Shown here: positions 1 through 22,144 of the stretch, piece after piece | How positions within the stretch are numbered: position 1 is the first letter of the stretch | Layout: each line of letters opens with the position of its first letter | From: Myxococcota bacterium | GTDB taxonomy: Bacteria; Myxococcota_C; UBA6777 | NCBI GenBank assembly: GCA_023150835.1 | Contig: JAKLKB010000111.1 | Coordinates: forward strand, 1 to 23,362 | Direction of reading: 5' to 3' | Length of the DNA: 23,362 nucleotides | Notes under the pieces: generated by a model | Seen by the model: only the letters and a program-made list of their open reading frames with translations | The model's database searches: none | Told to the model about the DNA's origin: nothing | Made by a program: the position numbers and the translations under genes

Positions 1-895
1 GAAAGCTTGTTCAAAGTGTTCGATGTTTTGGTAAGCAAGTGAAGATCGGAAAATTAGAAAAAGGAAAAGTCTGTTCGGTATGTTCTCTGGGAGTGGTGTA
101 AGGAGACCGCCAAGAACCCCAAAGCTAGGGCGGCGCCAACAATTTATTAAGCGGATGAAAATCTGTTGGTTGTTATGCGGATGGGATGATGAAGCGTTTA
201 CGAAAAAGCATAAGCAAAGCGGTACTATCAACGAAGGTTTGTTCTGCACCGATGCTTTGCGGATAAGAGATGCGTCGGCCTTTTATTTCAGTTTTTTATA
301 TGTTTGCTCTTTGACGTTCCTCCTTCGCGCAGCTAAACTGGGATAAGACCAACGCCGCCGATAAAGGCCATGTTCGAGGAGAGCGATGCCCGATCAGAAA
401 TGCGATCAAATGCCCCTCTTGGCTGATAAAAGCTGTGTTCGTGCTATTTCAAGAGGCAGGGCTGTTGGTTTGAAAAACGATGGCTCACCTCGCCAACAGT
501 CAAGGGAGCGCTGCTCTCTTGTTGGGCTTGGGGGCAACGCCTCACAAAACAGATCGAACCGGGAAAGTCTCGTATGAAAAGACGATTGGGCCAAGGCAAC
601 AAAAAGCAGCGGGCGCATGAAAGGTAAGCACTGCGCTGGATTATTTACGTTGGAAACCATCGAAGGCAAAACCATCACAACTGCTGCCGATGTAAGAAAA
701 GCGACCGATCGCTAAAACCACAACCCTCACCCAAAGAAAGGACGGCGCTACCTACCCCCTTGATATATAGCAGAGATCGGTTCGATAGGGACGAATTCAG
801 CGTCGAAGATTAGATTTCAGACGCTCTGGAATTTTACTGCTCACCAGTTCATCGTCAACTGCTATAAAAAGAGGACTTCCGCGCCTTAGTGCGTA
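1..895. other. Gap without convincing gene, upstream of the integrase
   Basis: I see no reading frame here with a recognisable protein; the longest (80-346 plus, 88 codons) has no good ribosome binding site and no family features. The stretch contains one divergent copy of the dispersed repeat (433-560) and a short inverted repeat at 136-169 (arms CCAACA and TGTTGG). A TATAAA at 863-868 could be a -10 element for the integrase, but no good -35 lies 16-18 bases before it. This is where an attI site and cassettes would be expected if the integrase ran an integron; I found no full attC pattern. Confidence 0.55.
433..560 (+). repeat. Dispersed repeat element, divergent copy 1 of 4
   Basis: This aligns along its length with the copies at 13182-13308, 20650-20780 (minus) and 21980-22110. 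Shared landmarks in order are GTGTTCG, CTGTTGGTTTGAAAAAC, a TCAAGGG hairpin arm, and CACAAAA followed by a GAACC-type end. The hairpin is at 501-521: CAAGGGAG pairs with CTCTCTTG with one G.U. The middle part (about 479-500) differs most from the other copies. An added 7-bp inverted repeat, CTGTTGG with CCAACAG, lies at about 462-499. Confidence 0.6.
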
Positions 896-2686
896 ATGAT
901 AAACCTAACAAGACCGACATTTGCCACAAGCATCGACAGATACGAGCGCCATCTTTTATGTATCGGAATCAAAAAAGAAGAAGTTTTTCATTGTGTTAAG
1001 TGGATTCGCTATTATCTTAATTTTTGCGCTAAATATTCATTTAATTTGGAAGAATTTGAGACAATAGATTTTTTTATTGATAAACTAAAAGAGAAAAAAC
1101 AAGAAATTTGGAAGAGAAAACAAGCAAGAAATGCAATTCACACTTTCTTAAATTTACAAAACATTCCGTCTACCTGCGACCGTTGCGATGAGTACCAAAA
1201 GGAGACTTGTAACGCGGACTCAAACAAGCCGAAAACCGAGCACTACCATGATCACGAAAGAAAGCAACACCAAGCGTTGTTATCGAACGCTATACAAATA
1301 AACAGCTTCCAAGAAGCTTCTGCAGAAAACAACAGATACCACACCGTTGCCTCGGAAGAAAGCAGAAACGAAGAAGCTTTCGCAAAAAAAGACGAGCTTA
1401 TCATAGAAAAAATAGAGATGTCCCAGTCTTTTGTATCGAACGAAGGTTTAAAAGTAAGCAACGCATTTTCTAGAAATTCAGCAAGAGAACATGCTGTTTC
1501 GGTGGATGAAGTTTCTCGTTTGGATGACGACATAAAACCTAGCAATTGCTTTGCAAACAGAACAACAGCGCAGACACTTGATCAGACAGAGAACCACATT
1601 GGCTCGCCTGTTTTCAAAAAGACGAGCCAGATAGAGAACCCTATTGATTTGCCTGTTTCCCAGAAAACGAACCAGACAGAGAATCACATCGATCCGCCCA
1701 TTCCTCAAAAAATGACTTGGACTGTTGTCTATCGCTTGCTTGGGTCGGCTATCGAGACCAGACATTACTCCCCCAAAACACTCAAAAGCTATAAAGGTTG
1801 GGTGTATCAACTGGAATTGTTTTGCAATCACAAACCTCCAAGCGAACTCTGCCATACGGACGTCGCCGCGTTTTTGAGCCATCTTGCCGTACACCGCCGT
1901 ATTTCCGCTTCGAGTCAAAACCTCGCTTTTCATGCGCTGTTGTTCGTTTTTAAGCATATACTCCAGAAAAATCTTGAAAATTTTACGGGCGTAATTCGCG
2001 CTAAAAAAACGAAATATGTACCTGCCGTATTGTCTCAACAAGAAGTACGAAAGCTGTTCGCAAACCTTGAAAAACCCATCGATTTGATCGCGATGGTTTT
2101 GTACGGATGCGGCTTGCGCTTGTCAGAAGGACTCAACCTGCGCGTACAAGATATCGATTTTGACAACGAACGACTGCTTGTCCGCAACGGGAAAGGAAGG
2201 AAAGATCGATGTGTTCCTTTGCCAGAAAGCATTCGTTCTCAACTTCAGAAGCAATTTCAACAAGTCGTAAAACTTCACCAAGAAGACAAACGTGTGGGCT
2301 TTGATGGAGTGTTTCTTCATGGAATTCATAGCGGAAGAAACAAAAATGCTGCAAAAGATTTGATTTTACAATGGTTTTTTCCAGCAGAACATCTAACAGA
2401 AACCCAAAGCGGAGAACTCCGACGCCACCACGTCCACGAAAGCTCCGTTCAAAAGGCTATCAAAAAAGCAGCTTACGAAGCCGAGATACCAAAACGAGTG
2501 ACTCCACATATCCTTCGGCATAGCTTCGCGAGCCATTTGCTACAAGCGAATTTTGATATCCGCACCATTCAAGAACTCCTCGGGCACAATAACCTTAACA
2601 CAACAATGATTTATACACATACTGTAAAAAGCTTTACCAAAAAAGAAGCCCAAAGTCCGCTCGATTTTTTAAACACCGAAGAATAG
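896..2686 (+). CDS. Integron-type tyrosine recombinase with long extra N-terminus (IntI family)
   Basis: A site-specific recombinase of 596 residues. The C-terminal half (about 273-592) is a complete integron integrase: core-binding domain 273-370, then catalytic residues R408, K436, H538, R541, H564 and the nucleophile Y573. The IntI-specific insert lies at about 494-523 (FFPAEHLTETQSGELRRHHV), which separates IntI from XerC/D. IntI proteins are normally about 320-340 residues. Here residues 1-92 look like a second core-binding, SAM-like domain (Tyr/Phe-rich helices), joined by a hydrophilic linker (about 93-229) and three 15-residue repeats (230-274). The first half is visibly A-rich and AT-rich compared with all other genes in the window, suggesting transfer. 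The start ATG at 896 follows an in-frame stop at 887 and has no good ribosome site at normal spacing. An ATG at 1712 would give a normal-length IntI but also lacks one. No cassette array is visible, so it may be a solitary integrase. Confidence 0.88.
   Translation: MINLTRPTFATSIDRYERHLLCIGIKKEEVFHCVKWIRYYLNFCAKYSFNLEEFETIDFFIDKLKEKKQEIWKRKQARNAIHTFLNLQNIPSTCDRCDEYQKETCNADSNKPKTEHYHDHERKQHQALLSNAIQINSFQEASAENNRYHTVASEESRNEEAFAKKDELIIEKIEMSQSFVSNEGLKVSNAFSRNSAREHAVSVDEVSRLDDDIKPSNCFANRTTAQTLDQTENHIGSPVFKKTSQIENPIDLPVSQKTNQTENHIDPPIPQKMTWTVVYRLLGSAIETRHYSPKTLKSYKGWVYQLELFCNHKPPSELCHTDVAAFLSHLAVHRRISASSQNLAFHALLFVFKHILQKNLENFTGVIRAKKTKYVPAVLSQQEVRKLFANLEKPIDLIAMVLYGCGLRLSEGLNLRVQDIDFDNERLLVRNGKGRKDRCVPLPESIRSQLQKQFQQVVKLHQEDKRVGFDGVFLHGIHSGRNKNAAKDLILQWFFPAEHLTETQSGELRRHHVHESSVQKAIKKAAYEAEIPKRVTPHILRHSFASHLLQANFDIRTIQELLGHNNLNTTMIYTHTVKSFTKKEAQSPLDFLNTEE
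1583..1717 (+). repeat. Three 45-bp in-frame tandem repeats in the integrase linker
   Basis: Units are 1583-1627, 1628-1672 and 1673-1717, each encoding 15 residues of the form QTENHIDxPxxQKTx. They join the extra N-terminal half to the normal integrase core-binding domain; the third unit ends at the methionine-threonine where ordinary IntI proteins would begin. The units differ from one another, so the duplication is not recent. Confidence 0.85.
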
Positions 2687-3015
2687 ACATTTTCTATGGA
2701 TTCATTCGGGGAGCCGCTTGGGTGGTTGTGAGCGCGATGGCCGCAGTCAGTTTAAGCGGTTGTTTGGAAAAGAGGGTGAGGCCGCAGTCAGTTTGAGCGG
2801 TTGTTTGGGAAAGAGTGTGAGGCCGCAGTCAGTTCGAGCGGTTGTTCGGGAAAGAGGGTGAGGTGGCAGTCGCTTGGGCAGTTGTGAGCACAGGGGCTAC
2901 AGTCGGTGGGTTGTTTTTGAGGATAGCAGTGCTTTGTTTTTCGTTACGGGTTGATAAAGCGAGACAGGCAAGCCGCACTGCATTCGAGGTCAGCACAGTA
3001 GCGCTTTGTTTTTCG
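2687..3015. other. Repeat-rich gap between convergent genes
   Basis: No gene is supported. The stretch lies between the integrase (plus) and the large secreted-protein gene (minus), which converge. It holds a 41-bp tandem repeat (2739-2861), degenerate relatives of that unit on both sides, and a copy of the last bases of the minus-strand gene (2931-2954). No Rho-independent terminator is obvious for either gene. Confidence 0.6.
2739..2861 (+). repeat. 41-bp tandem repeat, three units plus degenerate flanks
   Basis: Units at 2739-2779, 2780-2820 and 2821-2861 share the frame GGCCGCAGTCAGTT, then GAGCGGTTGTT and AAGAGGGTGA, with only a few differences each. Weaker versions occur before (2711-2738) and after (2862-2893), both containing CGCTTGGG and GTTGTGAGC. 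The unit length is not a multiple of 3 and no gene covers it. Confidence 0.9.
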
Positions 3016-3026
3016 TTACGGGTTGA
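2931..3026. repeat. Direct repeat: 3' end of the minus-strand gene duplicated downstream
   Basis: A 24-bp identical sequence occurs at 2931-2954 and 3003-3026, 72 bases apart, with weaker similarity continuing on both sides. The second copy contains the stop codon (3016-3018, minus) and the last codons of the large minus-strand gene. Read on minus, the outer copy encodes a similar ending (RFINP-stop against HFVNP-stop). Confidence 0.85.
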
Positions 3027-6000
3027 CGAAGTGAGAGCGAGTTTCGAGGGCGATATCAAGAGGCGAATTGGCAAGCGAAAGGAAAGCTTGGACGAGAGCA
3101 GAACCCGCTTGTTTGGCCGAGAGGACGAGCGTGATACGAAGGGTTTGCTTGGAGCCAAGAGAAGGGATGCGATGGATGCGATAATGGCCTGTGCTGCGGT
3201 CTTTTTCGATAAACACGCCTTTGGGTTCAGATTCAAAACGAACAAAGCGAGCGATATTATTGAAGTGTAGGCGGATATCGATATCTTGAGCTGCTGCTCC
3301 ACCGATGTTTCGGAGGGTGAGAGTATATTGGCTTTCTTGTCCGACTTGAGTGACAGATTGCGCGGGAGTCAGGTGGGCTTGAAGGATCGGACGCTTGGGA
3401 AGGATGACGCGGGGAGAAGAAGTCTCTTCGAGCTTGAGTTGAAAGTTACGGATTTGAAGGCGACTGTCCCCGTAGGCGACGATCTGGACGCGCCCTTGGG
3501 AGGAACTGAGATGGCGAACCGTATGGGCCAATCCAAACCAGTAGGAAAGTCGATGGCCACGAACTTTGACTCGAACGAGAGTCCAGCCTTGGGCTTGGAA
3601 GCGCCCACCTCCGAAGTATAGCCTGTTTGAAAAAGAATCGTGTTTGCTGTCTTTGTGAACCTGCAAAGAGAAACCACGTGCTGCATTGGCGACCTCAAAA
3701 GAGAGCGTGTAGTTTTTGAGCATATCGTCGCCAAGAGTCAGACGGGCTTGGTTGTGTGAGATGGTACGGGCCTCAAGCGCGCCGTTGGTCATGACCCAAT
3801 CGCCGTCGATATCGAAGTCGCCCGGGATATCTTTGTAAGATCTTTGGAGAGCGGCTTGGAGCGTTCGACGCTGGGCTGTTTGAAGAGATTTGAAGCGCTC
3901 GGCGTGTTTGCGAGCGATCAGCAGCACAGAAGAAAGTTGCGCACGTTGTTCAAGAGCAGACCATTGCTGCGCTGCAACGGAGAATTGAGCTTGTTCTTCC
4001 CAGATTTTAGAGGACTTGTTGAGCTCCTGAAGATCAGAAAGGTCGCGTAAAGCCGAAGAAAGAGAGCGTTGGAGTCGGCGAAATTCACCTGTGGAAAGAA
4101 GGGATGCGCCCGTCAAGAGCCACTCAAGGCCAAAGGAGGAACGCAGAGTGGCTGTGCTGTTGGGGGCGCTCCAAAGAAGGGTGGCTCGTGTGGGTTGAAG
4201 GTGTTTGAGGAGGGTATGGGCGCGAGGAAAGGCCGCGATGGGAGGGAGAGAACGTGCAAGAGAGCGTTCGCCTGTATAGAGGATTGGCAAAAGTCCGAGC
4301 ATGGTTTGATAAAGAAAGGTCGCTTGTTTACGCAAAGAAGCATGAGCAGAAAAGCCATTGTGAGTGGCTGTTTGCTTGAGGCTCGCACGCATCGCAAGGG
4401 TTTTGGGAGAAGGATGACGGAGAGAGTCGATCAGATCGCGGATGGCGTGTGGGGTTGGGGCGAGGATCATGTGGTTCTCGACGTAGACGAGACGCAAAAC
4501 GCGGAAGACTTCGGGGATTTGTTGTTGGCGCATGGCGTGGCGGCGATAACGGGGGTAGGGGCGTGGGCGGCGATAACGGCGGTGGCGTCGATATCCTCGG
4601 GAGTCGTGGCCGTAAGCGCGGGGGATGCGCGAAGGATAGGCGTTGGGATCGAACTTTTTTCGGGACTTTTCTTCGACGAAGCGGATGGGGGCGATGCGAT
4701 AGATCTTGTAGCCCTCATAAGAAGTCGATTTGAGTTCGAAGGCAAAGACGCCAGCGATAGAAGAAAAGAGTTTGTGGACCCGAGGTTGGTCTTGGAGTTT
4801 GAGGACTTGGATCCACGAGGGCCAGAGGGTGCCTTTGGGGTTGTAGAAAAAGATGGAGAAATCTTGTCCGAAGGCGCGAAGCGTTTGTTCGATGGTACCG
4901 TTGAGGAAAGCGCGTTCGACACGGACGACGTTTTGCATGAAGTAGGCGTGGAGGGGCGGTGCGAGCTTTTTGAGAGAGGCTTCGAGATCATGCCAGATCG
5001 AAGCGAGCGGGATATGGGTTTGGATGGCGGAGAAAGTGCGTGCGGGAGCGTAGTTGGAAAGCGAGCCGTCGACGGAGGGGAGCGAAAGGAGGCGAGAAAA
5101 GCCGCGCAGTTTGGCGGGGTCGAGCGAGAGATGGAAGCGGCTGACGAAGTCGGAACCTTCGGTCTGTAGGGTGATGCCGGCGCTTTTCCACGCAGAAAAG
5201 CCCAATCCATCGAAGATATCTTGTATTCCGATAGAGAACTGGCTGAGCGCAGAGCGGAACTGGGGTTCTAGCGTAAGGGCGGCTTGATTGAGGAGGGATT
5301 CGGTGGCGACGTAGAGAGAAAGGCCGCTACGGAATTGAGTGGCGCGCAAGAAGCCGAGGAAGAGAGGATCTTTGTCAAGGCCGATGCCTTGGCCGTTTGC
5401 GCGAGAAAGCATCTCTTTGAGTAATTCTGGTGTGGTGGCAAACAAGACGTGGTTGGGCAAGAACGTGAAGTGTACGTTGGTTTCAAGACCTTGGAGGAGT
5501 TGGACGGATTGGTTAGCGATCTTGTAATCAGCGCGCTTGACAGGGATTTGTTGAAGGAGGACGTCGACGAGCTTTTGCGCACGGGCCTGATCGGCATAAC
5601 GCAGGATGGCGGCCAATTGGAGGCGCTCGGAACCGACGGGGACGCGAACGACTGCAAAGACATGAGGGCCGTCAAAAAGAGCGGTTGCTTCGGAAAGGCG
5701 CATCCCTGCGAGTTGTTGAAGCAGTTTGTCGAAGAGGTGGGTGACGCGGGTACTTTCGAGCCCAGAGAGGACGCCACCGAGACCAAAACGGTGCAAAACA
5801 AAAGACAGAGTTCCTGCGCGTTTGCGGTTTTTTTTCCACCAACGCTTGAGTGGTTTGAGTTCGGGTTCTGCGAGCAGCTTGGCGAGCGAAGTCTGCGTCA
5901 AACCGCGTGAGATCTTGGAAAGCGAAGAGAGCGTAAGCGCAACTTGTGTGCCTTTGGGAAGAAGGCGGATCTCTTGTTGGGCCTCGATGTAAGTGGGCAG

Positions 6001-6117
6001 GCCATTGTTGGGTGGAGGGGCTTTGGGTGGGAGTGGATTTGCGTGGGCGTGGGAGAGCGTCCACAAACCAAGGCAAAGAGCGAAGGCGAACCAGAGACGC
6101 AAGGGACGGTAGCGCAT
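3016..6117 (-). CDS. Large secreted protein, DUF3352-like with C-terminal jelly-roll and beta-sandwich domains
   Basis: A predicted exported protein of 1033 residues with unknown function. The start at 6117 is chosen because AAGGAG precedes it by a few bases and it opens a signal peptide (MRYRP, hydrophobic core about 7-22, probable cleavage near residue 26, HAHA-N). Upstream in-frame codons give no such signal. Residues about 40-400 resemble DUF3352-type proteins found in cyanobacteria and deltaproteobacteria. Residues about 499-530 form an Arg/Tyr-rich insert (repeated RRHRRYRR and YPRYRR). About 680-760 is helical and Gln/Leu-rich. About 763-904 looks like a concanavalin/DUF1080-type jelly roll (GDFDIDGDWVMTNGALEAR, later YFGGGRF). 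About 905-1025 resembles a CARDB/DUF11-type surface beta-sandwich (YTLTLRNIGGAAAQDI). It stands alone on minus with an 855-bp gap upstream. The domain names are my recognition, not a search result; exported status is the safer part. Confidence 0.75.
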   Translation of the reverse strand: MRYRPLRLWFAFALCLGLWTLSHAHANPLPPKAPPPNNGLPTYIEAQQEIRLLPKGTQVALTLSSLSKISRGLTQTSLAKLLAEPELKPLKRWWKKNRKRAGTLSFVLHRFGLGGVLSGLESTRVTHLFDKLLQQLAGMRLSEATALFDGPHVFAVVRVPVGSERLQLAAILRYADQARAQKLVDVLLQQIPVKRADYKIANQSVQLLQGLETNVHFTFLPNHVLFATTPELLKEMLSRANGQGIGLDKDPLFLGFLRATQFRSGLSLYVATESLLNQAALTLEPQFRSALSQFSIGIQDIFDGLGFSAWKSAGITLQTEGSDFVSRFHLSLDPAKLRGFSRLLSLPSVDGSLSNYAPARTFSAIQTHIPLASIWHDLEASLKKLAPPLHAYFMQNVVRVERAFLNGTIEQTLRAFGQDFSIFFYNPKGTLWPSWIQVLKLQDQPRVHKLFSSIAGVFAFELKSTSYEGYKIYRIAPIRFVEEKSRKKFDPNAYPSRIPRAYGHDSRGYRRHRRYRRPRPYPRYRRHAMRQQQIPEVFRVLRLVYVENHMILAPTPHAIRDLIDSLRHPSPKTLAMRASLKQTATHNGFSAHASLRKQATFLYQTMLGLLPILYTGERSLARSLPPIAAFPRAHTLLKHLQPTRATLLWSAPNSTATLRSSFGLEWLLTGASLLSTGEFRRLQRSLSSALRDLSDLQELNKSSKIWEEQAQFSVAAQQWSALEQRAQLSSVLLIARKHAERFKSLQTAQRRTLQAALQRSYKDIPGDFDIDGDWVMTNGALEARTISHNQARLTLGDDMLKNYTLSFEVANAARGFSLQVHKDSKHDSFSNRLYFGGGRFQAQGWTLVRVKVRGHRLSYWFGLAHTVRHLSSSQGRVQIVAYGDSRLQIRNFQLKLEETSSPRVILPKRPILQAHLTPAQSVTQVGQESQYTLTLRNIGGAAAQDIDIRLHFNNIARFVRFESEPKGVFIEKDRSTGHYRIHRIPSLGSKQTLRITLVLSAKQAGSALVQAFLSLANSPLDIALETRSHFVNP

Positions 6118-6450
6118 AATAGGCTCCTTCTGTTGAGGGGTACGAGTGTCGGGCCACAGGGAAAGAGACGTCGTTTGTAGCGGAGAGGAAGGGCTGTTGC
6201 AAGAGGCCAGCAGAAAGGACCGAAGGTACAAACGTTGCGCAGCAGAGTTCTGTTGTGCTGGTCGGGTTGCAAGAGGCTAGAGACGAAAGACGGAAGAGGA
6301 TACTGCGAGTCGCAGGGAGGTGTATGTTGGGGGATGTGGGTGTGAAGAAGGCGAGGGTTTCGTGGCTGCGGGTCGCATGGAGGTGAATGTTGGAGATGAT
6401 GAAGAGGGCGGTCGCGGGTGAGATGAGGGGAGAGTGCGGTGGTGCGATCA

Positions 6451-6561
6451 GAAGAGCGCGGCAGCGGGAGAGAGAGGTGGTAGATGGTTGTTAGGGGCAA
6501 GTATGCGTGGGTTAAAATTGTCAGGAAGAGCGCGGCAGCGGGAGAGAGAGGTGGTAGATGG
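6451..6561 (+). repeat. 37-bp perfect direct repeat, 74 bp apart
   Basis: 6451-6487 and 6525-6561 are identical (starting GAAGAGCGCGGCAGCGGGAG, ending GTGGTAGATGG). The 37 bases between them are unrelated. No gene covers either copy. Confidence 0.9.
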
Positions 6562-6590
6562 AGCGTGCAGCAGTGCGAGTCGAGCGAGTG

Positions 6591-6671
6591 GTACGAGATT
6601 CGCTCGTTGCGTTATCGTAAAGAGGTCGGTGCAGACAGGTGTGGCTGCCCAACAATCGGGCGTCTAGGCAC
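6591..6671 (+). repeat. Isolated copy of the GGCTGCCCAACAATCGGGCG element
   Basis: 6640-6671 matches, with one difference, the conserved core of the 74-bp tandem repeat at 13353-13538. Weaker similarity runs back to 6591 and matches 13310-13352 (both contain TACGA then ATCGTAAA). The 8-bp GGGCAGCC arm that forms a hairpin in the other locus is not kept here. Confidence 0.75.
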
Positions 6672-6710
6672 TCTCCTATACATCACTCGGATATCGTACG
6701 AGATGGTAGG

Positions 6711-6773
6711 TTGAGCGAGTCGCGGTGCGAGTTGAGCGAGTCGCGGTGCGGGTTGAGCGAGCAGCGGCGCGAT
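6711..6773 (+). repeat. 21-bp tandem repeat, three units
   Basis: Units at 6711-6731, 6732-6752 and 6753-6773 share TTGAGCGAG, then CGCGGTGCG or a close variant. The third unit is the most changed. It lies about 200 bases upstream of kbl. Confidence 0.85.
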
Positions 6774-6889
6774 GGGAGTGTTACGATCGTGGTTGGTGGT
6801 GCGTCTGTGTGGATCGAGGGGTCGATGTGGTCGGAGGTCTGGGTCTTGTGCGTGCGGCGTATTGTGGTTTGAGAGGTGGTTGTGGTAGG

Positions 6890-7002
6890 CAAGATATCTT
6901 GCATTTTGGAGAGGAAGCAGCCGTTGTTTGGCGGCGTAAGACGGTCGTAGGAACCGCGTGGAAAGGTGAGCGATGTACAGCCAAAAGAGCCAAGATATCT
7001 TG
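6890..7002. promoter_or_regulatory. Twin CAAGATATCTTG palindromes bracketing the kbl start
   Basis: The same 12-bp perfect palindrome occurs at 6890-6901 and 6991-7002, 101 bases apart: one before kbl and one inside its first codons (residues 7-10). The upstream copy extends to 14 bp (6889-6902). Two identical operators about ten helical turns apart would suit a looping repressor. However, GATATC is frequent throughout this window, so chance is a real alternative. Confidence 0.3.
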
Positions 7003-13160: not shown

Positions 13161-13181
13161 GTGTCACTTGTCGCCAAAAAA

Positions 13182-13308
13182 AAAGCCGTGTTCGCGAACA
13201 TCCAAGCGACAGAGTTGTTGTCTTGAAAAACCTGCGATCTCTTCGCCGATACGAGGTCAAGGGAGCCGCGACCTTGGAAGTGGGGTATGGGGTGAAACCC
13301 CATCACAT
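13182..13308 (+). repeat. Dispersed repeat element, copy 2 of 4
   Basis: The copy starts about 25 bases after the membrane-protein stop. Landmarks are CCGTGTTCGCGAAC, CAAGCGACAGAG, TTGAAAAACCTGCGATCTC, TTCGCCGATACGAGG. The first hairpin, 13258-13276, has arms CAAGG and CCTTG. The second, 13287-13303, has perfect 7-bp arms ATGGGGT and ACCCCAT around GAA. Compared with the other copies both arms of these hairpins have changed together. Confidence 0.85.
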
Positions 13309-13346
13309 AATACGAAATCCGCAGGGTGTGTGATCGTAAAACGTAG

Positions 13347-13538
13347 GGGCAGCCCCCTGTGGCTGCCCAACAATCGGGCGTCTACGCACGAATCGGCTTT
13401 ATTGAGCGCTAGTTTTTTCCATTGCTCCCCCTGTAGCTGCCCAACAATCGGGCGTCTACGCACGAATCGGCTTTATTGAGCGCTAGTTTTTTCCATTGCT
13501 CCCCCTGTGGCTGCCCAACAATCGGGCGTCTACGCACG
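13347..13538 (+). repeat. 74-bp tandem repeat, two full units and a partial third, led by a strong hairpin
   Basis: Units begin at 13353, 13427 and 13501. Each opens CCCCCTGTGGCTGCCC, followed by AACAATCGGGCGTCTACGCACG, and then a tail with TTGAGCGCTAG and TTTTTTCC that the last unit lacks. Units differ at one base (GTGGC or GTAGC). The first unit is preceded by GGGGCAG, so that GGGCAGCC (13347-13354) pairs with GGCTGCCC (13361-13368) in an 8-bp stem. Each unit also contains GCGTCTACGC, a small palindrome. A lone relative lies at 6591-6671. Confidence 0.92.
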
Positions 13539-13610
13539 ACCCTCCGATCGCACATCTTTCGGAGGTCGTATAAGTCCAACCGCGTAAGTCCTATCAACAA
13601 ATTCCAAGGA

Positions 13611-14994: not shown

Positions 14995-16602
14995 ATGTTT
15001 TCAGGTTTTTTGCGAAGCGTACAAGAAATTCCCGTGACGTTGGGCTTTTTTGTGTTGCACGTGGCGTTGTTTTTGATGATGGTCGCACAAGGCTCCGTGG
15101 ACGAAGAAATGCCTCTGTTGTTGGGGTTTTCGTATGAGACGATGCGTGACTTTGGTGCGCAGATCAACCCGTTGATTTGGAGAGGTGAGGGGATACGTCT
15201 CTTTACAGCGGGGCTTTTGCATGGGGGGTTGCTGCACCTCGTGCTCAATAACCTTGTTCTCTACAACCTCGGATCGATCTTAGAGCGGATGTTGGGGAGC
15301 TTGCGCTTTTTGATGTTGTACGTGCTGGCTCTGCTTGTCGGGAACCTTGCGACGTTGTTGTATATGCCGCCGTATGCGGTCTCGCTGGGGGCTTCGGGGG
15401 CGATCATGGGCTTGGCTGGGGCGCTTTCGGTGTTTTTGTTAATGGATCGCGAGGGCCGATTTTTGCGCACAACTCCGCGAAGTCGAAACTTTTTCTTGTT
15501 TTTGGTTGCGCTCAACCTTGTTGTGGGTGAGTTGATCAGCATCATCAACAATGCCGCGCACATCGGCGGTTTTGTTTGCGGTGTGGTGTTTGGGTTGTTC
15601 TTTTGGGGGCGTATCCCCGGGACAGGCTTTTCTCGCAGTTTCGGATCTTTTTTGATGGTCTGTTTGCTTGGATTCTTGTTTTTGGGCCTACGCATCGGGC
15701 TTACCCCTCAAGACAGCCACGCTTGGTTTCTTCATCAAGCCCTCGAAACGACGCAACGCGGTGATGTACAAAATACAGAACGCGCCTTGCTCAAAGCCCT
15801 CGAAAAGAAGCGCGACACACCCACCCTCGAAAAGATCGGCACGCTGTACCAATACACCGAACAATGGGAACGATCGCTTGCTGTATACCGCGAACTCCAC
15901 ACCAAAGCACCACAAAATATCCTTTACACAATCCACTTGATCGAAGCGATGACCAAGACGGGACGCCATACCTCCGCAGATGTCCTATTCGTGCCTCTGC
16001 GCCAACGTCTCGAAGGGATCGAAGGTAGCGAGATTGCTCTGGCAATGCTGTTGCTTGCACGCCACCAAGAACGCGACGCGTTGTTGCTGCTTGGGCGTCT
16101 TTTGGAAAAAGAACCCCGACAATCCGTCTATCACAACGCGATGGCATGGACCCTCTTGACCGCCGATGATCGGCGCTTTCGCAACCCCACGCTCGCCCTT
16201 CAACACGCCAAGATCGCCGTCCAAGAAACTCAGTCTCGCCTCGGAACTTTTCTCGATACTCTCGCAACGGCTTACTTTCAAAACCATCAGCCCCAAAAAG
16301 CCATCGACTTGATCCACCAAGCAATGCGCTGTCCAGATGCAAAAGATCCAAGCGCGCTCTTGATGATCCATCTCCACCGTCAAAAGCAAAAATTCCTCCG
16401 CTCCCTTGCTTCCGCATCTTCTGCTTCCAAACCCACGCTCAGAGCCGCGACTTCCGCTTCCAAGCCCACACTTCGCTCCGCATCTTCCGCTTCCAATCCC
16501 ACACTTCGTTCCGCATCTTCCGCTTCCAAACCCACGCTCAGAGCCGCATCTTCCGTATCTTCACCCTCTTCTGTTCCTGCTGTGCGATCTCGTCAACCGT
16601 GA
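14995..16602 (+). CDS. Rhomboid-family intramembrane serine protease with TPR-like C-terminus
   Basis: A membrane protease of 535 residues expected to cut transmembrane substrates. The rhomboid core spans about 10-230 with six or so membrane segments. HGGLLHLVLNN (76-86) gives the conserved His/Asn of segment 2, GASG (132-135) gives nucleophile S134, and NNAAHIGGFVCG (185-196) gives catalytic H189, so the Ser-His dyad is intact. Residues about 235-460 are soluble helical pairs typical of TPR repeats (TLYQYTEQWERSLAVYRELH; LATAYFQNHQPQKAIDLIHQ). The last about 75 residues are Ser/Ala-rich with four 11-residue repeats. The ATG at 14995 has AGGGAGA just upstream. TPR tails occur in other bacterial rhomboids and probably recruit partners; the substrate is unknown. 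Confidence 0.9.
   Translation: MFSGFLRSVQEIPVTLGFFVLHVALFLMMVAQGSVDEEMPLLLGFSYETMRDFGAQINPLIWRGEGIRLFTAGLLHGGLLHLVLNNLVLYNLGSILERMLGSLRFLMLYVLALLVGNLATLLYMPPYAVSLGASGAIMGLAGALSVFLLMDREGRFLRTTPRSRNFFLFLVALNLVVGELISIINNAAHIGGFVCGVVFGLFFWGRIPGTGFSRSFGSFLMVCLLGFLFLGLRIGLTPQDSHAWFLHQALETTQRGDVQNTERALLKALEKKRDTPTLEKIGTLYQYTEQWERSLAVYRELHTKAPQNILYTIHLIEAMTKTGRHTSADVLFVPLRQRLEGIEGSEIALAMLLLARHQERDALLLLGRLLEKEPRQSVYHNAMAWTLLTADDRRFRNPTLALQHAKIAVQETQSRLGTFLDTLATAYFQNHQPQKAIDLIHQAMRCPDAKDPSALLMIHLHRQKQKFLRSLASASSASKPTLRAATSASKPTLRSASSASNPTLRSASSASKPTLRAASSVSSPSSVPAVRSRQP
16414..16545 (+). repeat. Four 33-bp in-frame tandem repeats at the rhomboid C-terminus
   Basis: Units at 16414, 16447, 16480 and 16513, each encoding ASSASKPTLRA or a close variant. 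Units 1 and 4 are nearly the same, as are 2 and 3, so two rounds of duplication are likely. The resulting tail is Ser-rich and basic, and probably disordered. Confidence 0.9.
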
Positions 16603-16622
16603 TCTCTTACGCAGTTTTTTCT

Positions 16623-16654
16623 TTGACATGATCTGACATCCCTTTCATTAGAAT
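16623..16654 (+). promoter_or_regulatory. Possible sigma-70 promoter for the four-cysteine protein/RecD2 unit
   Basis: A perfect -35 (TTGACA, 16623-16628) is followed by a good -10 (TAGAAT, 16649-16654), but the 20-base spacing is longer than the usual 16-18. CATTAG at 16646 has better spacing but a poor match. It would give a leader of about 70 bases. Confidence 0.4.
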
Positions 16655-16688
16655 GGGTCAACGTGAAACGATGAGCGATAACCCTTGC

Positions 16689-16713
16689 GTGGCGCACTCC
16701 TTTTCAGCGCCAC
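16689..16713 (+). other. Leader hairpin before the four-cysteine protein gene
   Basis: GTGGCGC (16689-16695) and GCGCCAC (16707-16713) form a perfect 7-bp stem with an 11-base loop, ending a few bases before the strong ribosome site GGAGGAT. It lies in the presumed untranslated leader and could affect message stability or translation. No T-run follows, so it is not a terminator. Confidence 0.5.
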
Positions 16714-16731
16714 CCTTACGGAGGATCAGAG

Positions 16732-17625
16732 ATGACTCGCAACAAATTGGCACGCACCGAACAAAGCACTTCTCCTTCTCTTAGCGAACAAATGAAACAA
16801 AACACTCAGTTCCAAGGTCTCGGCTTCGAGATCTTTGGAGAACAAGAGTTCGTTCGCTACCCTGTCATCGGTGTCAATCAACCCACCAGTGACTACAAAC
16901 CCGAAGGCAAATTCCATAACCGCGTGACGGGCGATGTCTACGACTCCGTTGAGGTTGTCTTCCTCGGCCTTCGCCGCTCGATGACCTTTCGCCCCAATGG
17001 CTACAATGATCCCGTCCCTGCTTGCTTTAGCAACGATGCTCTCCGTCCCGACTCCACCGTCGAACAACCTGTGCATCACACCTGCCATCGCATGGGACCG
17101 CGTGGTCTGATCGCCGAATGCCCTAACGCCCGTTGGAATCGCACCAACGACGGGAAAGCTCGCCGCGCTTGTGACCTCCGTTATACCGCTGCTGTTGATA
17201 TGAACGGCAAGCACTTCTTGATGTACTTCCAAGGCCGCTCCATCGCCCCGCTCGAACGCTTCTTGAGCCAAGTCCGCCAATTCCGCCAACCGTTGTTTGG
17301 TGTACGCGTCGGTCTCAGCTTGATCTATCGCACCAAAAAAGAAGGCTTCATGGGCAACTTCTACGAGATCAACTTCCCCGATATGTCCAACCCTTCCGAG
17401 CGCGATCGTGTCGAAGTTGTTGACGCTCTTGAATTCCAAGAAATGGCCCAATTCTTCAAAGATTACTTTGACACCGCTCCCTCCGAACTCTACCATGAAG
17501 GCGAAGGCGAACCCGACAAAACAGCCGCCACAAATCCCCGTGACGGTGTTCGTTATGCCGATGCCACCGAAAAAAATGATGCGTCCGTCGAAGATCGCTG
17601 GGGCAACGCCAACAACGATTTCTAA
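16732..17625 (+). CDS. Four-cysteine protein resembling phage DNA-metabolism proteins, RecD2 neighbour
   Basis: A soluble protein of 297 residues with no firm assignment. Four cysteines (C98, C118, C130, C147) lie in a block PACFSND...HHTCHRMGP...ECPNARW...RRACDLRY. That layout resembles a family I associate with phage and prophage genes, where the cysteines probably bind zinc. Around it are beta-rich stretches (about 70-85, 150-167, 188-215) that could form an OB-like fold. The last about 60 residues are acidic and polar and end in NDF. Single-stranded DNA-binding proteins also have acidic tails ending in Phe, so I infer possible DNA binding, but the similarity is loose. GGAGGAT just before the ATG is a strong ribosome site, better than most in the window. 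The RecD2-type helicase follows after 45 bases, suggesting a shared role in DNA repair or recombination. Confidence 0.75.
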   Translation: MTRNKLARTEQSTSPSLSEQMKQNTQFQGLGFEIFGEQEFVRYPVIGVNQPTSDYKPEGKFHNRVTGDVYDSVEVVFLGLRRSMTFRPNGYNDPVPACFSNDALRPDSTVEQPVHHTCHRMGPRGLIAECPNARWNRTNDGKARRACDLRYTAAVDMNGKHFLMYFQGRSIAPLERFLSQVRQFRQPLFGVRVGLSLIYRTKKEGFMGNFYEINFPDMSNPSERDRVEVVDALEFQEMAQFFKDYFDTAPSELYHEGEGEPDKTAATNPRDGVRYADATEKNDASVEDRWGNANNDF

Positions 17626-17670
17626 TCCACACAAAAACGACACGCCAAAAAAAACGAACGGGTCAACACG

Positions 17671-19992
17671 ATGCCGATCAGCCCATCTCACACCATCCAT
17701 CCCGAATTCTCTCCCCCAACAGATCGTTCCCCATCTCCCATCCCACCCGCCTTGCGCGATCTTGGCAAGGGGCGGGCCGCAGGAAAGGGCCGAATCGAGA
17801 GCAAGGGGCGGGCCGAAGGAAAGGGCCGAATCGAGAGCAAGGGGCGGGCCGAAGGAAAGGTAAACACCGAGCCGCCTTGTGCTTATGAGGCTGTGGTGAT
17901 CGGGCTGATCTATCGTAAGCCCCAAACCTCTTGGGGGGTGGTGCGGATCCGTCTTGCCGAAGAGATCGCCTGTGCCAAGGGTGCTGTGATGCCCGTTGCC
18001 CTCGGCTCTTGGATTCGGATCGAAGGGTGGTGGGAAGATTGCGAACAGTGGGGGCGTTTGCTGCGCGTGTGGTCGATGCGTGAGTTTGTCCCTGTGGGTG
18101 CGGAAGGGATGACGCGCTATCTGTTGAGCTTGCGTCTTCCTCGCCTGACACCCCCGCGCTGCGAAGAGATCGTCCGAACCTTTGGACGTCATACCCTCGA
18201 AGTCATCGAACAAAAGCCCGAACGACTCAAAGAGCTGGCTTGGCCAGAAGACTTTGCTTCCCAGATCCATCGGGCCTTTTGCCGAAAGATGCCGTCTCGT
18301 TCTTTGCTCGCATCTCCCGAAACATGGGGGCTTTCGCTCGAACAAGCTGAACAACTGCTTCGACACCACGGAAACCGCACGCTCGATCTGTTGCGCCGCG
18401 ATCCCTACCGTTTGTTGTGTGAGGCTGGACTGGCCTTTTCCCTTGCAGAACAAGTCGCTGAGCGCCTCGGCCTTCAATCCCAAGATCCCCGTCGTGTCCG
18501 CGCTGCGATCCAAAGCATTCTCCGCGATGCTGCCGAAAATGAAGGACACACCGCACTCCCACGCCAAGAACTCCTCGCACGCACCCGCAGCCGTCGCCTC
18601 CAACTCGACCCCCAAACCGCGTTGTTTGCGATCTCCCGTATGGAGCAAGAAAACCTCCTTTGTGCCGATCCCGAGGAGGCCTTGCTCGGACTCCCCGAAC
18701 TCGTCCAAGAAGAACGCGAGATCGCTCGCGGCTTGTGGAAGCTTAACCGCCAACGCCAAGAACGAGAGATCCTCGCCCCCAACTCCGACCTCAATCCGCA
18801 ACAAGCCGAAGCCATCCGCCAGATCCAACAATCCCGCTGCATGATCCTGACAGGTGGCCCCGGTACAGGAAAAACCTACACGGTGCGTTCCATGCTTTCT
18901 CTTGGCTGGAAACAGCCGATCTTGGCCGCACCTACGGGAAAAGCCGCAAAGCGCCTTACCGAGTTGACGGGGATGGCCGCGTGGACGCTCCACCGCTTGC
19001 TCGAATACAACCCGACGGATCGCCGCTTTGGACGAGATGCCGAGTCGCCCCTTGATGCCGACTTGATCGTTGTCGACGAAGCCGCGATGCTCGATATCCC
19101 CCTGATGTCCGCTTTGATCCGTTCCATCCGCACCGAACAAACCACGCTTGTGCTTTGCGGTGATGCCAACCAACTACCCTCCGTTGGACCCGGAAACCTC
19201 CTGATGGATCTGATCCAAACACAGCTACTCCCCGTCGTGGAGCTAAAACAAGTCGTCCGTCAACACGAGCAAAACCAGATCATCCCCAATGCCCAACGCA
19301 TCCTCGAAGGAACACCCATCCTCGTCAACAACAAACAGTACGTCGACTTCAAATACTTTTCCGTCGACGCTTCCACCCAAGTGACCGAACGCAAAACCCT
19401 CGTCGAAACCCTCCAGCAGATCTTTTCTCGCCTGCGCAAAGACGGCTACGCCGCCGAAGATATCCAAGTCCTCTCCCCAATGAAAAAAGGCGATGTCCCG
19501 GGCGCTTATGCACTCAATGATGTTCTCCAAAAGCTGCTCAGCCCCGGGATCGACGGTCGTTCGATCGCCAACGGAAACACGCGCTTTTTTCTCGGGGATC
19601 GCGTGATTCAATTGCGCAACGACTACGAACGCGAAGTCTTTAACGGAGACACGGGCGTGATCGTACAAGTCGGTGCAGGGATCGACGTTCGATTCGAACA
19701 ACGCATCGTCTCTTATGATGCCGCAAGTCTCGGTGATCTCGAACTCTCTTACGCCATCTCGATCCACAAAAGCCAAGGCTCCGAATGGCCCGTCGTGATC
19801 CTCCCCCTCTCTCTTGCCCACAAACAAATGCTCTCCCGCCGCCTGCTTTACACCGCGATGACCCGCGCTCAAAAACTCCTGATCCTCGTTGGAGATGAAC
19901 GCGCCGTCGCTCACGCCGTCTCTTCCAACGAAGCAGAAGGCCGCCGGACCACCCTCGCCGATTGGTGCCGTACCCTCCAAGCCATCCGCTAA
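17671..19992 (+). CDS. recD2: RecD2-type SF1B DNA helicase
   Basis: A 5'-3' DNA helicase of 773 residues, of the RecD2/TraA type that works without RecBC. Residues about 70-150 match the RecD2 N-terminal beta domain, and about 150-330 the helix-hairpin-helix region (LPRLTPPRCEEIVRTFG; GLSLEQAEQLL). The motor starts near 375 (LNPQQAEAIRQI) with Walker A GGPGTGKT (395-402, K401), Walker B VVDEAAM (D469, E470), CGDANQLPSVGPG, and C-terminal motifs SYAISIHKSQGSEWPVVILPL and LLYTAMTRAQKLL. All look intact. Residues 1-67 are unusual: a Pro/Ser-rich start and a basic 12-residue repeat. The ATG at 17671 has only a weak ribosome site, so translation may depend on the gene before it. The last 31 bases of the gene region recur 61 bases downstream. 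The gene converges with hemJ. Confidence 0.93.
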   Translation: MPISPSHTIHPEFSPPTDRSPSPIPPALRDLGKGRAAGKGRIESKGRAEGKGRIESKGRAEGKVNTEPPCAYEAVVIGLIYRKPQTSWGVVRIRLAEEIACAKGAVMPVALGSWIRIEGWWEDCEQWGRLLRVWSMREFVPVGAEGMTRYLLSLRLPRLTPPRCEEIVRTFGRHTLEVIEQKPERLKELAWPEDFASQIHRAFCRKMPSRSLLASPETWGLSLEQAEQLLRHHGNRTLDLLRRDPYRLLCEAGLAFSLAEQVAERLGLQSQDPRRVRAAIQSILRDAAENEGHTALPRQELLARTRSRRLQLDPQTALFAISRMEQENLLCADPEEALLGLPELVQEEREIARGLWKLNRQRQEREILAPNSDLNPQQAEAIRQIQQSRCMILTGGPGTGKTYTVRSMLSLGWKQPILAAPTGKAAKRLTELTGMAAWTLHRLLEYNPTDRRFGRDAESPLDADLIVVDEAAMLDIPLMSALIRSIRTEQTTLVLCGDANQLPSVGPGNLLMDLIQTQLLPVVELKQVVRQHEQNQIIPNAQRILEGTPILVNNKQYVDFKYFSVDASTQVTERKTLVETLQQIFSRLRKDGYAAEDIQVLSPMKKGDVPGAYALNDVLQKLLSPGIDGRSIANGNTRFFLGDRVIQLRNDYEREVFNGDTGVIVQVGAGIDVRFEQRIVSYDAASLGDLELSYAISIHKSQGSEWPVVILPLSLAHKQMLSRRLLYTAMTRAQKLLILVGDERAVAHAVSSNEAEGRRTTLADWCRTLQAIR
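17767..17859 (+). repeat. 36-bp in-frame tandem repeat near the RecD2 N-terminus
   Basis: Units at 17767-17802 and 17803-17838 and a partial third at 17839-17859 differ by about one base. Each encodes KGRAEGKGRIES, giving a basic, probably disordered linker before the conserved N-terminal domain. The near-identity points to recent duplication. Confidence 0.92.
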
Positions 19993-20058
19993 ACTTTTGG
20001 TTCGGGGAAAAAAGGCGGGTACAGAGCGCCGTACCCTCCAAGCCATCCGCTAAACTTT
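19967..20058 (+). repeat. 31-bp perfect direct repeat: recD2 3' end duplicated
   Basis: 19967-19997 (the last nine codons of recD2, including the stop, plus five bases) is identical to 20028-20058, 61 bases further on, between recD2 and hemJ. The outer copy is not translated. Its GTACCC (20031-20036) forms one arm of the hemJ terminator. Confidence 0.95.
20008..20036 (-). terminator. Rho-independent terminator of hemJ
   Basis: Read on minus: GGGTAC (20036-20031), an 8-base loop, GTACCC (20022-20017), then three bases and six T (20013-20008). It starts about 33 bases after the hemJ stop. It has no T-run on the plus strand, so it should not terminate recD2 transcription. Confidence 0.75.
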
Positions 20059-20068
20059 CGGGGGGTTT

Positions 20069-20608
20069 TCAGCGCGTAGTGTTCTTTCGCATCGTGCGGT
20101 AGATCCGAATCGCAAGCACCAAGACCCCCGTCAAGATCACCAGCCCCAACAATCCCCACAAAAAATCCACCGCGCTTTTGAGTACCACCAAAAAGACGAT
20201 CGCTACGAGGAAAAGCGTCGCGACCTCATTCCACATCCGTAGCTGCGTTGACGTGTAAACCAGATCATCGCGTTGAAAATGCCTAATTATCCGACCGCAA
20301 GAAAGATGATACCCACACAGGCCCACCACAAACCCCAACTTCACCCACATCCAAGGCTCACGCCAGTACCCAAACCCGTACAGCAGCGCAAAGCCCGTCA
20401 GCAACGTCACCACCATCGACGGCCATGTGATGCCGTACCACAAACGCCGCTGCATCAGCTTGAATTGATCAGCCATCGCTTCTCGCACAGGCGGCTCGCA
20501 CCGCTCGGTCTCTTTGTGGTAAACGAACAGCCGCACGATATAAAACAGGCCCGCAAACCACGTCACCACAAAGACGATGTGCAGAGCCTTGGTGTACAAG
20601 AGCCACAT
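20069..20608 (-). CDS. hemJ: Protoporphyrinogen IX oxidase, HemJ type
   Basis: A membrane enzyme that oxidises protoporphyrinogen IX to protoporphyrin IX, the step before iron insertion in heme synthesis. It has 179 residues and about five membrane segments, in the normal range for HemJ (formerly UPF0093). Visible features are KALHIVFVVTWFAGLFYIVR (7-26) with the conserved heme-ligand candidate H10, WMWVKLGFVVGLCGYHL (86-102) with the conserved K90, and RMWNEVATLFLVAIVFLVVLK. AGGAGG ten bases before the ATG supports the start. It is convergent with recD2 and has its own terminator. No other heme gene is next to it. Confidence 0.92.
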   Translation of the reverse strand: MWLLYTKALHIVFVVTWFAGLFYIVRLFVYHKETERCEPPVREAMADQFKLMQRRLWYGITWPSMVVTLLTGFALLYGFGYWREPWMWVKLGFVVGLCGYHLSCGRIIRHFQRDDLVYTSTQLRMWNEVATLFLVAIVFLVVLKSAVDFLWGLLGLVILTGVLVLAIRIYRTMRKNTTR

Positions 20609-20938
20609 AAACGCGTATCCTCCTGAGGGAAAGAAGGGTTGGTTGGATGGGTTCTATTTTTGTGGGATGCCACCCCACACCCCGCAAGGGAACTCCGTCC
20701 CCTTGACCCCGTGTTGACGAAGAGATCGCAGGCTTTTCAAACCAACGGCTCTGTCGCTCGCAACGAGTGCGAACACGGGGGGGGTTCTCCGCTGCGTAAG
20801 CCCTATCCAAGAAGAAAGACCTTGTTGGATTTGATGGTGTGTGGAGATGCGCATTCTTCCTTCCACTGAGCGAACAAGCCACGAGAGCATACTCGATCCG
20901 CCTTATAAAAAGCAGGGCGATCTACAGGAGTGTTGATC
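20609..20938. other. Divergent gap between hemJ and the ApbA-like gene
   Basis: No gene. It contains a dispersed-repeat copy on minus (20650-20780), an eight-G run, the motif GCGTAAGCCCTATC (20794-20807), and TATAAA (20904-20909), which could serve as a -10 for the plus-strand gene, although no clear -35 is present. Confidence 0.55.
20650..20780 (-). repeat. Dispersed repeat element, copy 3 of 4 (inverted)
   Basis: Read on minus it runs CCGTGTTCGC, GCGACAGAGCCGTTGG, TTTGAAAAGCCTGCGATCTC, CGGGGTCAAGGGG, TTCCCTTGCGGGGTGTGGGG. The first hairpin, 20685-20705, has arms CAAGGGGA and TTCCCTTG. The second pairs GTGGG with CCCAC. It matches copy 4 closely in its second half and copy 2 in its first half. 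Confidence 0.88.
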
Positions 20939-21934
20939 ATGAAGGTGTTGTTGGTTGGAGCGGGTGCTGTAGGGCAAGTGTTTGGCCGCCATTTGCAAAA
21001 GGGCGGAGCCGAGATCCATTTTTTCGTGCGAGAAAAGTACGCACAAGAAGCTCGACAAGGCTATTGGATGGCCCCGTGGGATCGCAAAGATCCGCTATCG
21101 CATCCTGTACGTCTCGAGGGATTTGGCGTGTTGACCACGCTTGAAGAAGTCCGGCAGACGCGATGGCAACAAGTGTATCTTTGTGTGTCTTCGGCGGCGT
21201 TGCGGGTGGGTTGGATCGAAGAGCTTGCCCAAGTTCTCGGTGATGCCGTCGTGATCGCACTACAACCCGGCGTACACGATCGCGATCTGCTTCATCGCTT
21301 CATTGAACCTGAAAGGCTTGTGATGGGAACGGTCGGCTTTTTAAGCTATCACGCCCCGCTGTCCGATGAATCCGTTCTCCATCCTTGCACAGCGTACTGG
21401 TTTCCTCCGCTTTCTCCTACGCCATTTTCGTCTCCCTCCAAAGAAAACTGCCGCTCCGTTGTCGAGGCGCTCAAACGCGGAAAGCTGCCTGCGATCGCTG
21501 TTCGCGATATCGTCGGATCTTCGGCCTATATCTCGGCCCTTTTGATGCACCTTGTCGCGGCGCTCGAATGCAACGGGTGGTCCTGTGAACAGCTTGCCCG
21601 TAGCCCCGACCTTCAAAGCATCCGCAGCGCCACGCTTGAGGTCTTCTATGCGTTTCAAGATTCCTATCGACCGCCTCTTCCGCTTTGGTTGTTTCGATTG
21701 CTTTTGCGCCCGATCTGGATGCGTCTGGGACTCGCGATCGCCCCCAAGATCGTCCCTTTTTCGATCGAGCGCTTTTTACAGGTCCACTTTTCCAAGGTGG
21801 GCGATCAGACGCTTCTGATGCTTGCGGACTCTCTGGCGTTTGGACAGCAGCGCGGCCTCTCGATGCCCGCGCTGTTCTCGCTTTCTGAACGGCTGCGTCA
21901 ACAACGCGCAAAACATCGCGCCGAAAACGCATGA
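20939..21934 (+). CDS. ApbA/PanE-type 2-dehydropantoate reductase family protein
   Basis: A probable NAD(P)H-dependent oxidoreductase of 331 residues. The N-terminus MKVLLVGAGAVGQVFGRHL is the Rossmann dinucleotide motif GxGxxG typical of ketopantoate reductases, followed by the family-like strand pattern QVYLCVSSAAL and ALQPGVHDRDLL. The C-terminal half is helical, as in PanE, but includes a basic, hydrophobic stretch (PLPLWLFRLLLRPIWMRLGL). The conserved lysine of true PanE (usually in a KxxxN-type helix) is not clearly placed, so the pantothenate role is not certain and I give no symbol. GGAG eight bases before ATG 20939 supports this start over GTG and TTG codons at 20930-20935. A dispersed-repeat copy follows 45 bases after the stop. 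Confidence 0.8.
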   Translation: MKVLLVGAGAVGQVFGRHLQKGGAEIHFFVREKYAQEARQGYWMAPWDRKDPLSHPVRLEGFGVLTTLEEVRQTRWQQVYLCVSSAALRVGWIEELAQVLGDAVVIALQPGVHDRDLLHRFIEPERLVMGTVGFLSYHAPLSDESVLHPCTAYWFPPLSPTPFSSPSKENCRSVVEALKRGKLPAIAVRDIVGSSAYISALLMHLVAALECNGWSCEQLARSPDLQSIRSATLEVFYAFQDSYRPPLPLWLFRLLLRPIWMRLGLAIAPKIVPFSIERFLQVHFSKVGDQTLLMLADSLAFGQQRGLSMPALFSLSERLRQQRAKHRAENA

Positions 21935-21979
21935 TGGCGCGAAATAGAAGTCCGAAGTGGTTCGCAGCGTTGAAACAAC

Positions 21980-22110
21980 CCCGTGTTCGTAAACGCCCAA
22001 GCGACAGAGTCGTTGTGTTGAAAAACAAAGCTCTCTTCGCCGATATGGGGTCAAGGGGACGCAGTTCCCTTGCGGGGTGTGGTACCTCGCCCCACAAAAT
22101 CAAACCAACC
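21980..22110 (+). repeat. Dispersed repeat element, copy 4 of 4
   Basis: Landmarks are CCGTGTTCGTAAAC, CAAGCGACAGAGTCGTTG, TTGAAAAACAAAGCTCTC, TTCGCCGATATGGGGTCAAG. The first hairpin, 22052-22072, has arms CAAGGGGA and TTCCCTTG. The second pairs TGTGG with CCACA. It fills most of the gap between the reductase and hydrolase genes, and its end is 34 bases before the hydrolase start. Confidence 0.88.
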
Positions 22111-22144
22111 GCTTGATTCCTGTAAAGAAGAAAGGAGAACACAC

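What the first reader, a model, noticed from the sequence alone, without database searches (positions are those of the whole stretch)
433..22110. A roughly 130-bp dispersed repeat in four copies, with a hairpin kept despite sequence change
Copies at 433-560, 13182-13308, 20650-20780 (minus) and 21980-22110 align end to end. The first hairpin's arms differ between copies, yet pair in all four: CAAGGGAG/CTCTCTTG, CAAGG/CCTTG, and CAAGGGGA/TTCCCTTG in two. A second hairpin is ATGGGGT/ACCCCAT in one copy, GTGGG/CCCAC in another and TGTGG/CCACA in a third. Paired change suggests selection on structure. Four copies in 23 kb would mean many per genome. All sit between genes, and none encodes a protein. 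It could be a non-autonomous mobile element, a processed RNA, or a protein-binding repeat of the REP type.
Basis: seen in the sequence. Interest (0 to 1): 0.72.

Follow-up and report, generated by a model that had tools for sequence, protein, structure and literature searches.

The report
Abundant miniature transposon in a myxobacterium
The repeat is one of about 750 copies of a small mobile DNA element that carries no genes and has spread through the spaces between genes of an uncultured myxobacterium; it is a known kind of element, unusually abundant here, and one of its strands looks like a transcription stop signal.

Summary
The four copies are real and belong to a family of about 750 copies in this 7.56-Mb Myxococcota genome. 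The family is also abundant in its one sampled congener (MAG KLAP109) and was not convincingly found in three same-family genomes. The best-preserved copies are about 171 bp long. They have 17-bp terminal inverted repeats (TAGGACTTACGCAGTTG), some have exact 5-7-bp target duplications, and many sites are occupied in one genome and empty in the other. No partner transposase was found.

The claim of selection on structure holds only in part. One inner helix and the first 3' hairpin covary among copies beyond shuffling. However, many copies have mismatched arms in that 3' hairpin, orthologous copies diverge at the intergenic rate (0.094 against 0.092), and most changes in the three scored stems break the pair.

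An added finding: on its minus strand the element reads as a long hairpin followed by a T-run. Genes that end beside it do so preferentially on that side, in both genomes. This suggests a portable or tolerated terminator, as proposed for SPRITE, but termination itself was not tested.

The parts
426..549 (+). copy 1, 127-position core of the element; 346 bp upstream of the integron-integrase gene at 896; no recognisable terminal repeats
   Evidence: 87.0 bits, E 1.2e-21
13179..13307 (+). copy 2, core; abutted on its 3' side by a different repeat (AATACGAAATCCGC...)
   Evidence: 112.9 bits, E 7.6e-29
20658..20785 (-). copy 3, core; lies between divergent genes, 49 bp upstream of the UPF0093 gene at 20069-20608 (-)
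   Evidence: 125.2 bits, E 2.9e-32
20789..20805 (-). 5' terminal inverted repeat of copy 3 (TAGGGCTTACGCAGCGG, 3 mismatches to TAGGASTNACGCAGTTG)
   Evidence: none of 2000 random 40-position windows did as well
21974..22099 (+). copy 4, core; between two + genes, 45 bp upstream of the called start of an alpha/beta-hydrolase gene (22145)
   Evidence: 137.3 bits, E 1.3e-35
22106..22122 (+). 3' terminal inverted repeat of copy 4 (reverse complement CAGGAATCAAGCGGTTG, 4 mismatches)
   Evidence: 5 of 2000 random windows reached 4 mismatches

Best explanation
It is a MITE: a short DNA transposon without a gene, moved in trans by a transposase that recognises its terminal inverted repeats TAGGACTTACGCAGTTG and duplicates 5-6 bp of target. 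SHOWN: terminal repeats, target duplications, about 750 copies, intergenic location, occupied/empty polymorphism between two congeners, a second 116-bp family with the same termini, and divergence of orthologous copies at the intergenic rate. INFERRED: that a transposase acts in trans (none was identified), and that the interior hairpins matter to the copies that propagate rather than to each resident copy. ALSO INFERRED, weaker (about 0.4): on its minus strand the element ends in a long hairpin followed by a T-run and acts as, or is tolerated as, an intrinsic terminator. This would explain why genes that end next to it do so preferentially on the side from which they read that strand.
For: Terminal repeats: TAGGASTNACGCAGTTG with at most 1 mismatch occurs 181 times in the genome and its reversed control 0 times. 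With at most 3 mismatches in 15 it is found beside 91 of 299 cores at the 5' end, mostly 27-30 bp from a fixed anchor, and beside 80 at the 3' end, mostly 21-24 bp from the core; shuffled flanks give 1 and 0. Pairs of termini cluster at 116 bp and at 157-171 bp. Exact 5-7-bp target duplications flank 9 of 37 long pairs and 10 of 13 of the 116-bp pairs. Mobility: in DNA syntenic with KLAP109 (G001), 10 G001 copies lie at sites without one in G000 and 14 G000 copies at sites without one in G001; 22 G001 copies have a copy at the matching site, of which about 16 are close enough to be orthologues. Census. Orientation to the next gene on the 3' side is close to even, 100 sense and 109 antisense. 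Divergence between orthologous copies: stems 0.085, inner helices 0.07, unpaired 0.11; intergenic DNA 0.092, coding 0.062. Terminator-like strand: at least 5 T in 7 after the P1 arm in 198 of 254 copies. Gene ends within 60 bp: 67 of 113 on the right against 32 of 91 on the left (Fisher p 0.0007); in G001 51 of 74 against 28 of 58 (p 0.02).
Against: No transposase with these termini was found: the two intact DDE transposases and the IS630-type one whose flanks were scanned lack them, and two long TIR-bounded stretches (1.3 and 2.0 kb) hold no transposase gene. It may be lost or hidden in assembly gaps. About 60% of cores have no recognisable terminal repeat although their core identity to the consensus (0.79) is only slightly lower than in copies with both (0.82). 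Polymorphic copies are no closer to another copy (median 0.85) than shared ones (0.855), so precise loss may account for part of the polymorphism; only part of each genome was sampled. In the window only 2 of 8 ends are recognisable. The orientation bias was found after looking at several comparisons, with a home-made gene caller.
Confidence: 0.9

Rival explanations
1. A domesticated portable terminator: the element is mobile by origin, but many copies are now kept because their minus strand terminates transcription of the gene that ends beside it.
For: Orientation bias at gene ends in both genomes; hairpin plus T-run on the minus strand in 198 of 254 copies; precedent in SPRITE, and QMITE2 in gene 3' regions.
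Against: Stems in orthologous copies evolve at the intergenic rate and most stem changes in the scored helices break the pair. The bias could come from purging of harmful orientations rather than from benefit. The terminator scan of the window listed no site at copies 3 and 4, though its 3-8-base loop limit excludes such a long hairpin.
Confidence: 0.25
2. A structured non-coding or cis-regulatory RNA whose structure is under selection in each copy.
For: Stable three-hairpin fold (z -3.2 and -4.3 in two copies); covariation in helix P2 (102 double compensated changes against 35 in shuffles) and P4 (134 against 43); covariation score above all 500 shuffles and above all slid controls.
Against: Near-even orientation to the next gene on the 3' side; neutral-rate divergence and broken pairs in orthologues; no covariation beyond shuffles in P1 or P3 and little in P5; presence/absence polymorphism; no Rfam match.
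Confidence: 0.06
3. A REP-type palindrome spread by a RAYT (Y1) transposase, or attC sites of the integron integrase at 896-2686.
For: High copy number, palindromes, intergenic position; an integron integrase in the same window.
Against: Terminal repeats and target duplications; much longer than a REP; only two weak Y1_Tnp matches in G000 and none in G001, which has as many copies of the termini; both orientations, not in cassette arrays; no GTTRRRY core-site motif seen at the element ends.
Confidence: 0.03

Closest known systems
QMITE2 of Coxiella burnetii (PMC5896051)
   Same: 150-190-bp MITE with stable stem-loops, variable target duplications, many copies without terminal repeats, found at gene 3' ends, and with a palindrome that serves as landing site for another element (IS1111)
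   Different: Different sequence and termini; 78 copies against about 750; target duplications 7-11 bp against 5-7; the element that lands in the hairpin here is itself a 210-260-bp repeat without a known enzyme
SPRITE of Streptococcus pneumoniae (PMC3049150)
   Same: Dispersed repeat with a long stem followed by a T-rich tract, enriched at gene 3' ends, proposed to be co-opted as a terminator
   Different: SPRITE has only AAAA/TTTT termini and no demonstrated target duplication; here 17-bp termini, target duplications and empty sites are seen
ERIC elements (review PMC10969869)
   Same: MITE-like intergenic element at very high copy number (711 reported in Photorhabdus luminescens)
   Different: Sequence relation to ERIC was not tested by alignment; found here only in one genus of Myxococcota among the genomes searched

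Membership tests
MITE | short (under about 500 bp), no transposase gene | tested here: met
   about 171 bp, no coding capacity
MITE | terminal inverted repeats | tested here: met
   TAGGACTTACGCAGTTG, 17 bp; recognisable at both ends in 51 and at one end in 69 of 299 copies
MITE | target-site duplication | tested here: met
   exact 5-7 bp in 9 of 37 long pairs and 10 of 13 of the 116-bp pairs
MITE | mobility shown by occupied and empty sites | tested here: met
   10 G001 copies and 14 G000 copies at sites without a copy in the other genome; 22 G001 copies with a copy at the matching site
MITE | termini shared with an autonomous partner element | tested here: inconclusive
   none found among the transposases and TIR pairs examined; assembly is fragmented
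REP element | 20-40-bp palindrome mobilised by a RAYT transposase | tested here: not met
   about 171 bp with terminal repeats; two weak Y1_Tnp matches in G000 and none in G001
integron attC site | RYYYAAC/GTTRRRY core sites in a cassette array of one orientation | tested here: not met
   element ends carry target duplications, copies lie singly in both orientations; motifs judged by reading the sequence, no attC model was run
intrinsic terminator | GC-rich hairpin followed by a T-run on the transcribed strand | tested here: met
   minus strand, 198 of 254 copies with at least 5 T in 7; the hairpin encloses a long structured loop, so it is not a typical terminator
intrinsic terminator | ends transcription | not testable with these tools
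   no RNA data
Rfam RNA family | match above gathering score | tested here: not met
   no match in the window or in 10 further loci, and none at E up to 1 over copies 3 and 4

The most novel reading that the evidence does not exclude
The element does not amplify in bursts of near-identical copies: copies differ by about 30% pairwise, and those present in only one of the two genomes are as far from their nearest sampled relative (about 14%) as shared copies are. This could mean that copying is error-prone, or that precise loss through the hairpin-rich interior is a main driver of turnover, while the minus-strand terminator decides which insertions survive.
Probability: 0.08. Interest if true: 0.6.

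Novelty: new member of a known kind. Interest (0 to 1): 0.34.

Why it matters
It is a large MITE load (roughly 1.7% of the genome) in a phylum where one search for such elements in the literature turned up nothing relevant. The two closely related genomes give direct occupied/empty comparisons. The terminator-side bias, seen in both genomes, gives a simple test of how such repeats come to sit behind genes.

Tried and rejected
Autonomous partner: searched DDE_Tnp_1, DDE_Tnp_1_2, ISAzo13 and IS630-type families in one or both genomes; the intact IS982 and IS4 transposases and the IS630-type one lack these termini, and the ISAzo13 search was uninformative because its controls did not ring. TIR-bounded stretches of 1339 bp (G000:C183) and 2037 bp (G001:C435) proved to be combinations of these repeats with other DNA (the second encloses a 515-aa gene that is not a transposase), and a lone terminus at G000:C102 abuts a gene for a cysteine-rich protein. 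attC and RAYT explanations rejected. Leader or riboswitch role rejected on orientation. Copies outside the genus: no viral match to a 22-base core pattern, no plasmid match to copy 4, no strong match in three same-family genomes (best E 0.003, 25 bits). Literature search with an 11-base piece of the terminal repeat: nothing relevant.

Full report
OBSERVATION. The four copies are real: 426-549 (+), 13179-13307 (+), 20658-20785 (-) and 21974-22099 (+). Copy 4 used alone as a BLAST query returns at least 40 places in the genome, the output cap, the weakest listed at E 6.7e-21. Large contigs read in full hold 74 copies in 789 kb at E below 1e-12, and another 773 kb hold 80 by nhmmer. That is about 10 per 100 kb, or roughly 750 copies in 7.56 Mb. 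Some of these regions were chosen because they held a known copy, so the density may be slightly high. Three genomes of the same family show nothing beyond one weak match at E 0.003. No match was found in viral contigs with a 22-base pattern or in plasmids with copy 4.

ANATOMY. The best-preserved copies measure about 171 bp: TAGGACTTACGCAGTTG, a short A-rich linker, the 127-bp core, and the inverted terminus. The 17-bp terminus occurs 181 times in the genome with at most one mismatch, against 0 for the reversed pattern. Termini lie at a nearly fixed distance from the core: 91 of 299 copies at the 5' side and 80 at the 3' side, against 1 and 0 in shuffled flanks. Exact direct duplications of 5-7 bp flank 9 of 37 long pairs. 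A separate 116-bp family with the same termini has them in 10 of 13.

MOBILITY. The two genomes are about 90-96% identical in most syntenic stretches. Of the copies whose flanks could be matched in both, 10 in G001 lie at sites without a copy in G000, 14 in G000 lie at sites without a copy in G001, and 22 G001 copies have a copy at the matching site. About 16 of those are close enough to be orthologous; the rest may be independent insertions. Alignments show the whole element as one insertion relative to the empty site (for example L074 against C70:34881, and L189 against L175). This shows gain, precise loss, or both.

STRUCTURE AND SELECTION. Among 346 aligned copies, helices P2 and P4 have about three times as many double compensated changes as shuffled columns (102 against 35, 134 against 43). 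P1 and P3 have no excess, and P5 and the alternative helix P2b have little. The tool's own count on 61 copies agrees: covariation score 0.138, against 0.108 in shuffles and at most 0.100 in slid controls. Relatedness of copies can produce part of this. The P4 arms come in two main types, AAGGG or CATAG on the 5' side and CCCTTG or CTATGG on the 3' side. Of 363 copies, 226 are AAGGG/CCCTTG, 46 combine non-matching types and only 2 carry both changed arms; the remainder have other letters in an arm. In 16 orthologous pairs (two could not be scored) the core diverged by 0.094 overall (stems 0.085, inner helices 0.07, unpaired 0.11) and intergenic DNA beside it by 0.092. Of 52 stem changes in P1, P4 and P5, 34 leave a non-standard pair and one is compensatory. 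An earlier test on 10 pairs, using each copy's own predicted fold, found fewer stem changes than random placement, so weak constraint on stems is not excluded. The simplest reading is that resident copies evolve almost neutrally and that helix-preserving variants arose in propagating lineages.

POSITION AND POSSIBLE EFFECT. Only 10 of 234 copies overlap a called gene, although 84% of the DNA is called coding. Orientation to the next gene on the 3' side is close to even, 100 sense and 109 antisense. One asymmetry stands out: genes that end within 60 bp of the element do so on its right side in 67 of 113 cases and on its left side in 32 of 91 (p 0.0007). The sister genome agrees, 51 of 74 against 28 of 58 (p 0.02), and with known shared copies removed p is 0.03. 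A gene ending on the right reads into the element's minus strand, where the P1 hairpin is followed by at least 5 T in 7 bases in 198 of 254 copies. The comparison was made after viewing the data and rests on a home-made gene caller, but the second genome is a partly independent repeat of it. No RNA data were available.

WHAT IT IS. All tested defining features of a MITE are met except the identification of an autonomous partner, which the fragmented assembly may hide. The closest published parallels are QMITE2 of Coxiella, SPRITE of pneumococcus and, for copy number, ERIC with 711 reported copies in Photorhabdus. It is a new family of a known kind.

OPEN POINTS. About 60% of cores lack a recognisable terminus although their cores are only slightly more diverged (0.79 against 0.82 identity to consensus). 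Copies differ by about 30% pairwise, and polymorphic copies are no closer to a relative than shared ones. With about a quarter of one genome and a ninth of the other sampled, missing source copies may explain this, but precise loss or error-prone copying are not excluded.

Noticed in passing
window 896-2686 (+): Integron integrase (TIGR02249, 337.7 bits, cut-off 265) with about 280 extra N-terminal residues that matched no family; copy 1 lies upstream of it. No attC search was made.
   Followed up: partly
L170:4243-4358; G000:C70:30544-30659; G000:C87:79379-79494: A second MITE family of 116 bp with the same terminal repeats, much more uniform (median 93% identity to one copy) and with 5-6-bp target duplications.
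   Followed up: partly
window 13308-13574 and 6620-6671: Another dispersed repeat (ends CGGATTTCGTAT / ATACGAAATCCG, inner GGGGCAGCCCC palindrome), about 174 places in 2.1 Mb; three 74-bp units in tandem in the window; it abuts copy 2.
   Followed up: partly
window 23156-23362 (to the contig end); G000:C138:116385; G000:C128:22371: A 210-260-bp repeat inserted beside GGGG...CCCC hairpins of two other repeats, with the hairpin present on both sides of the insertion, as if hairpins were its landing site and were duplicated.
   Followed up: partly
elements with P4 arms CAAGGG/CTATGG or CCATAG/CCCTTG (for example L136:19054 and L134:3751): The two non-matching arm combinations look like inversions of one another, as if the hairpin had flipped.
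   Followed up: no
window 2739-2871, 16411-16575, 17765-17872: Tandem repeats of 41, 33 and 36 bp: the first just downstream of the integrase gene, the other two inside called genes.
   Followed up: no
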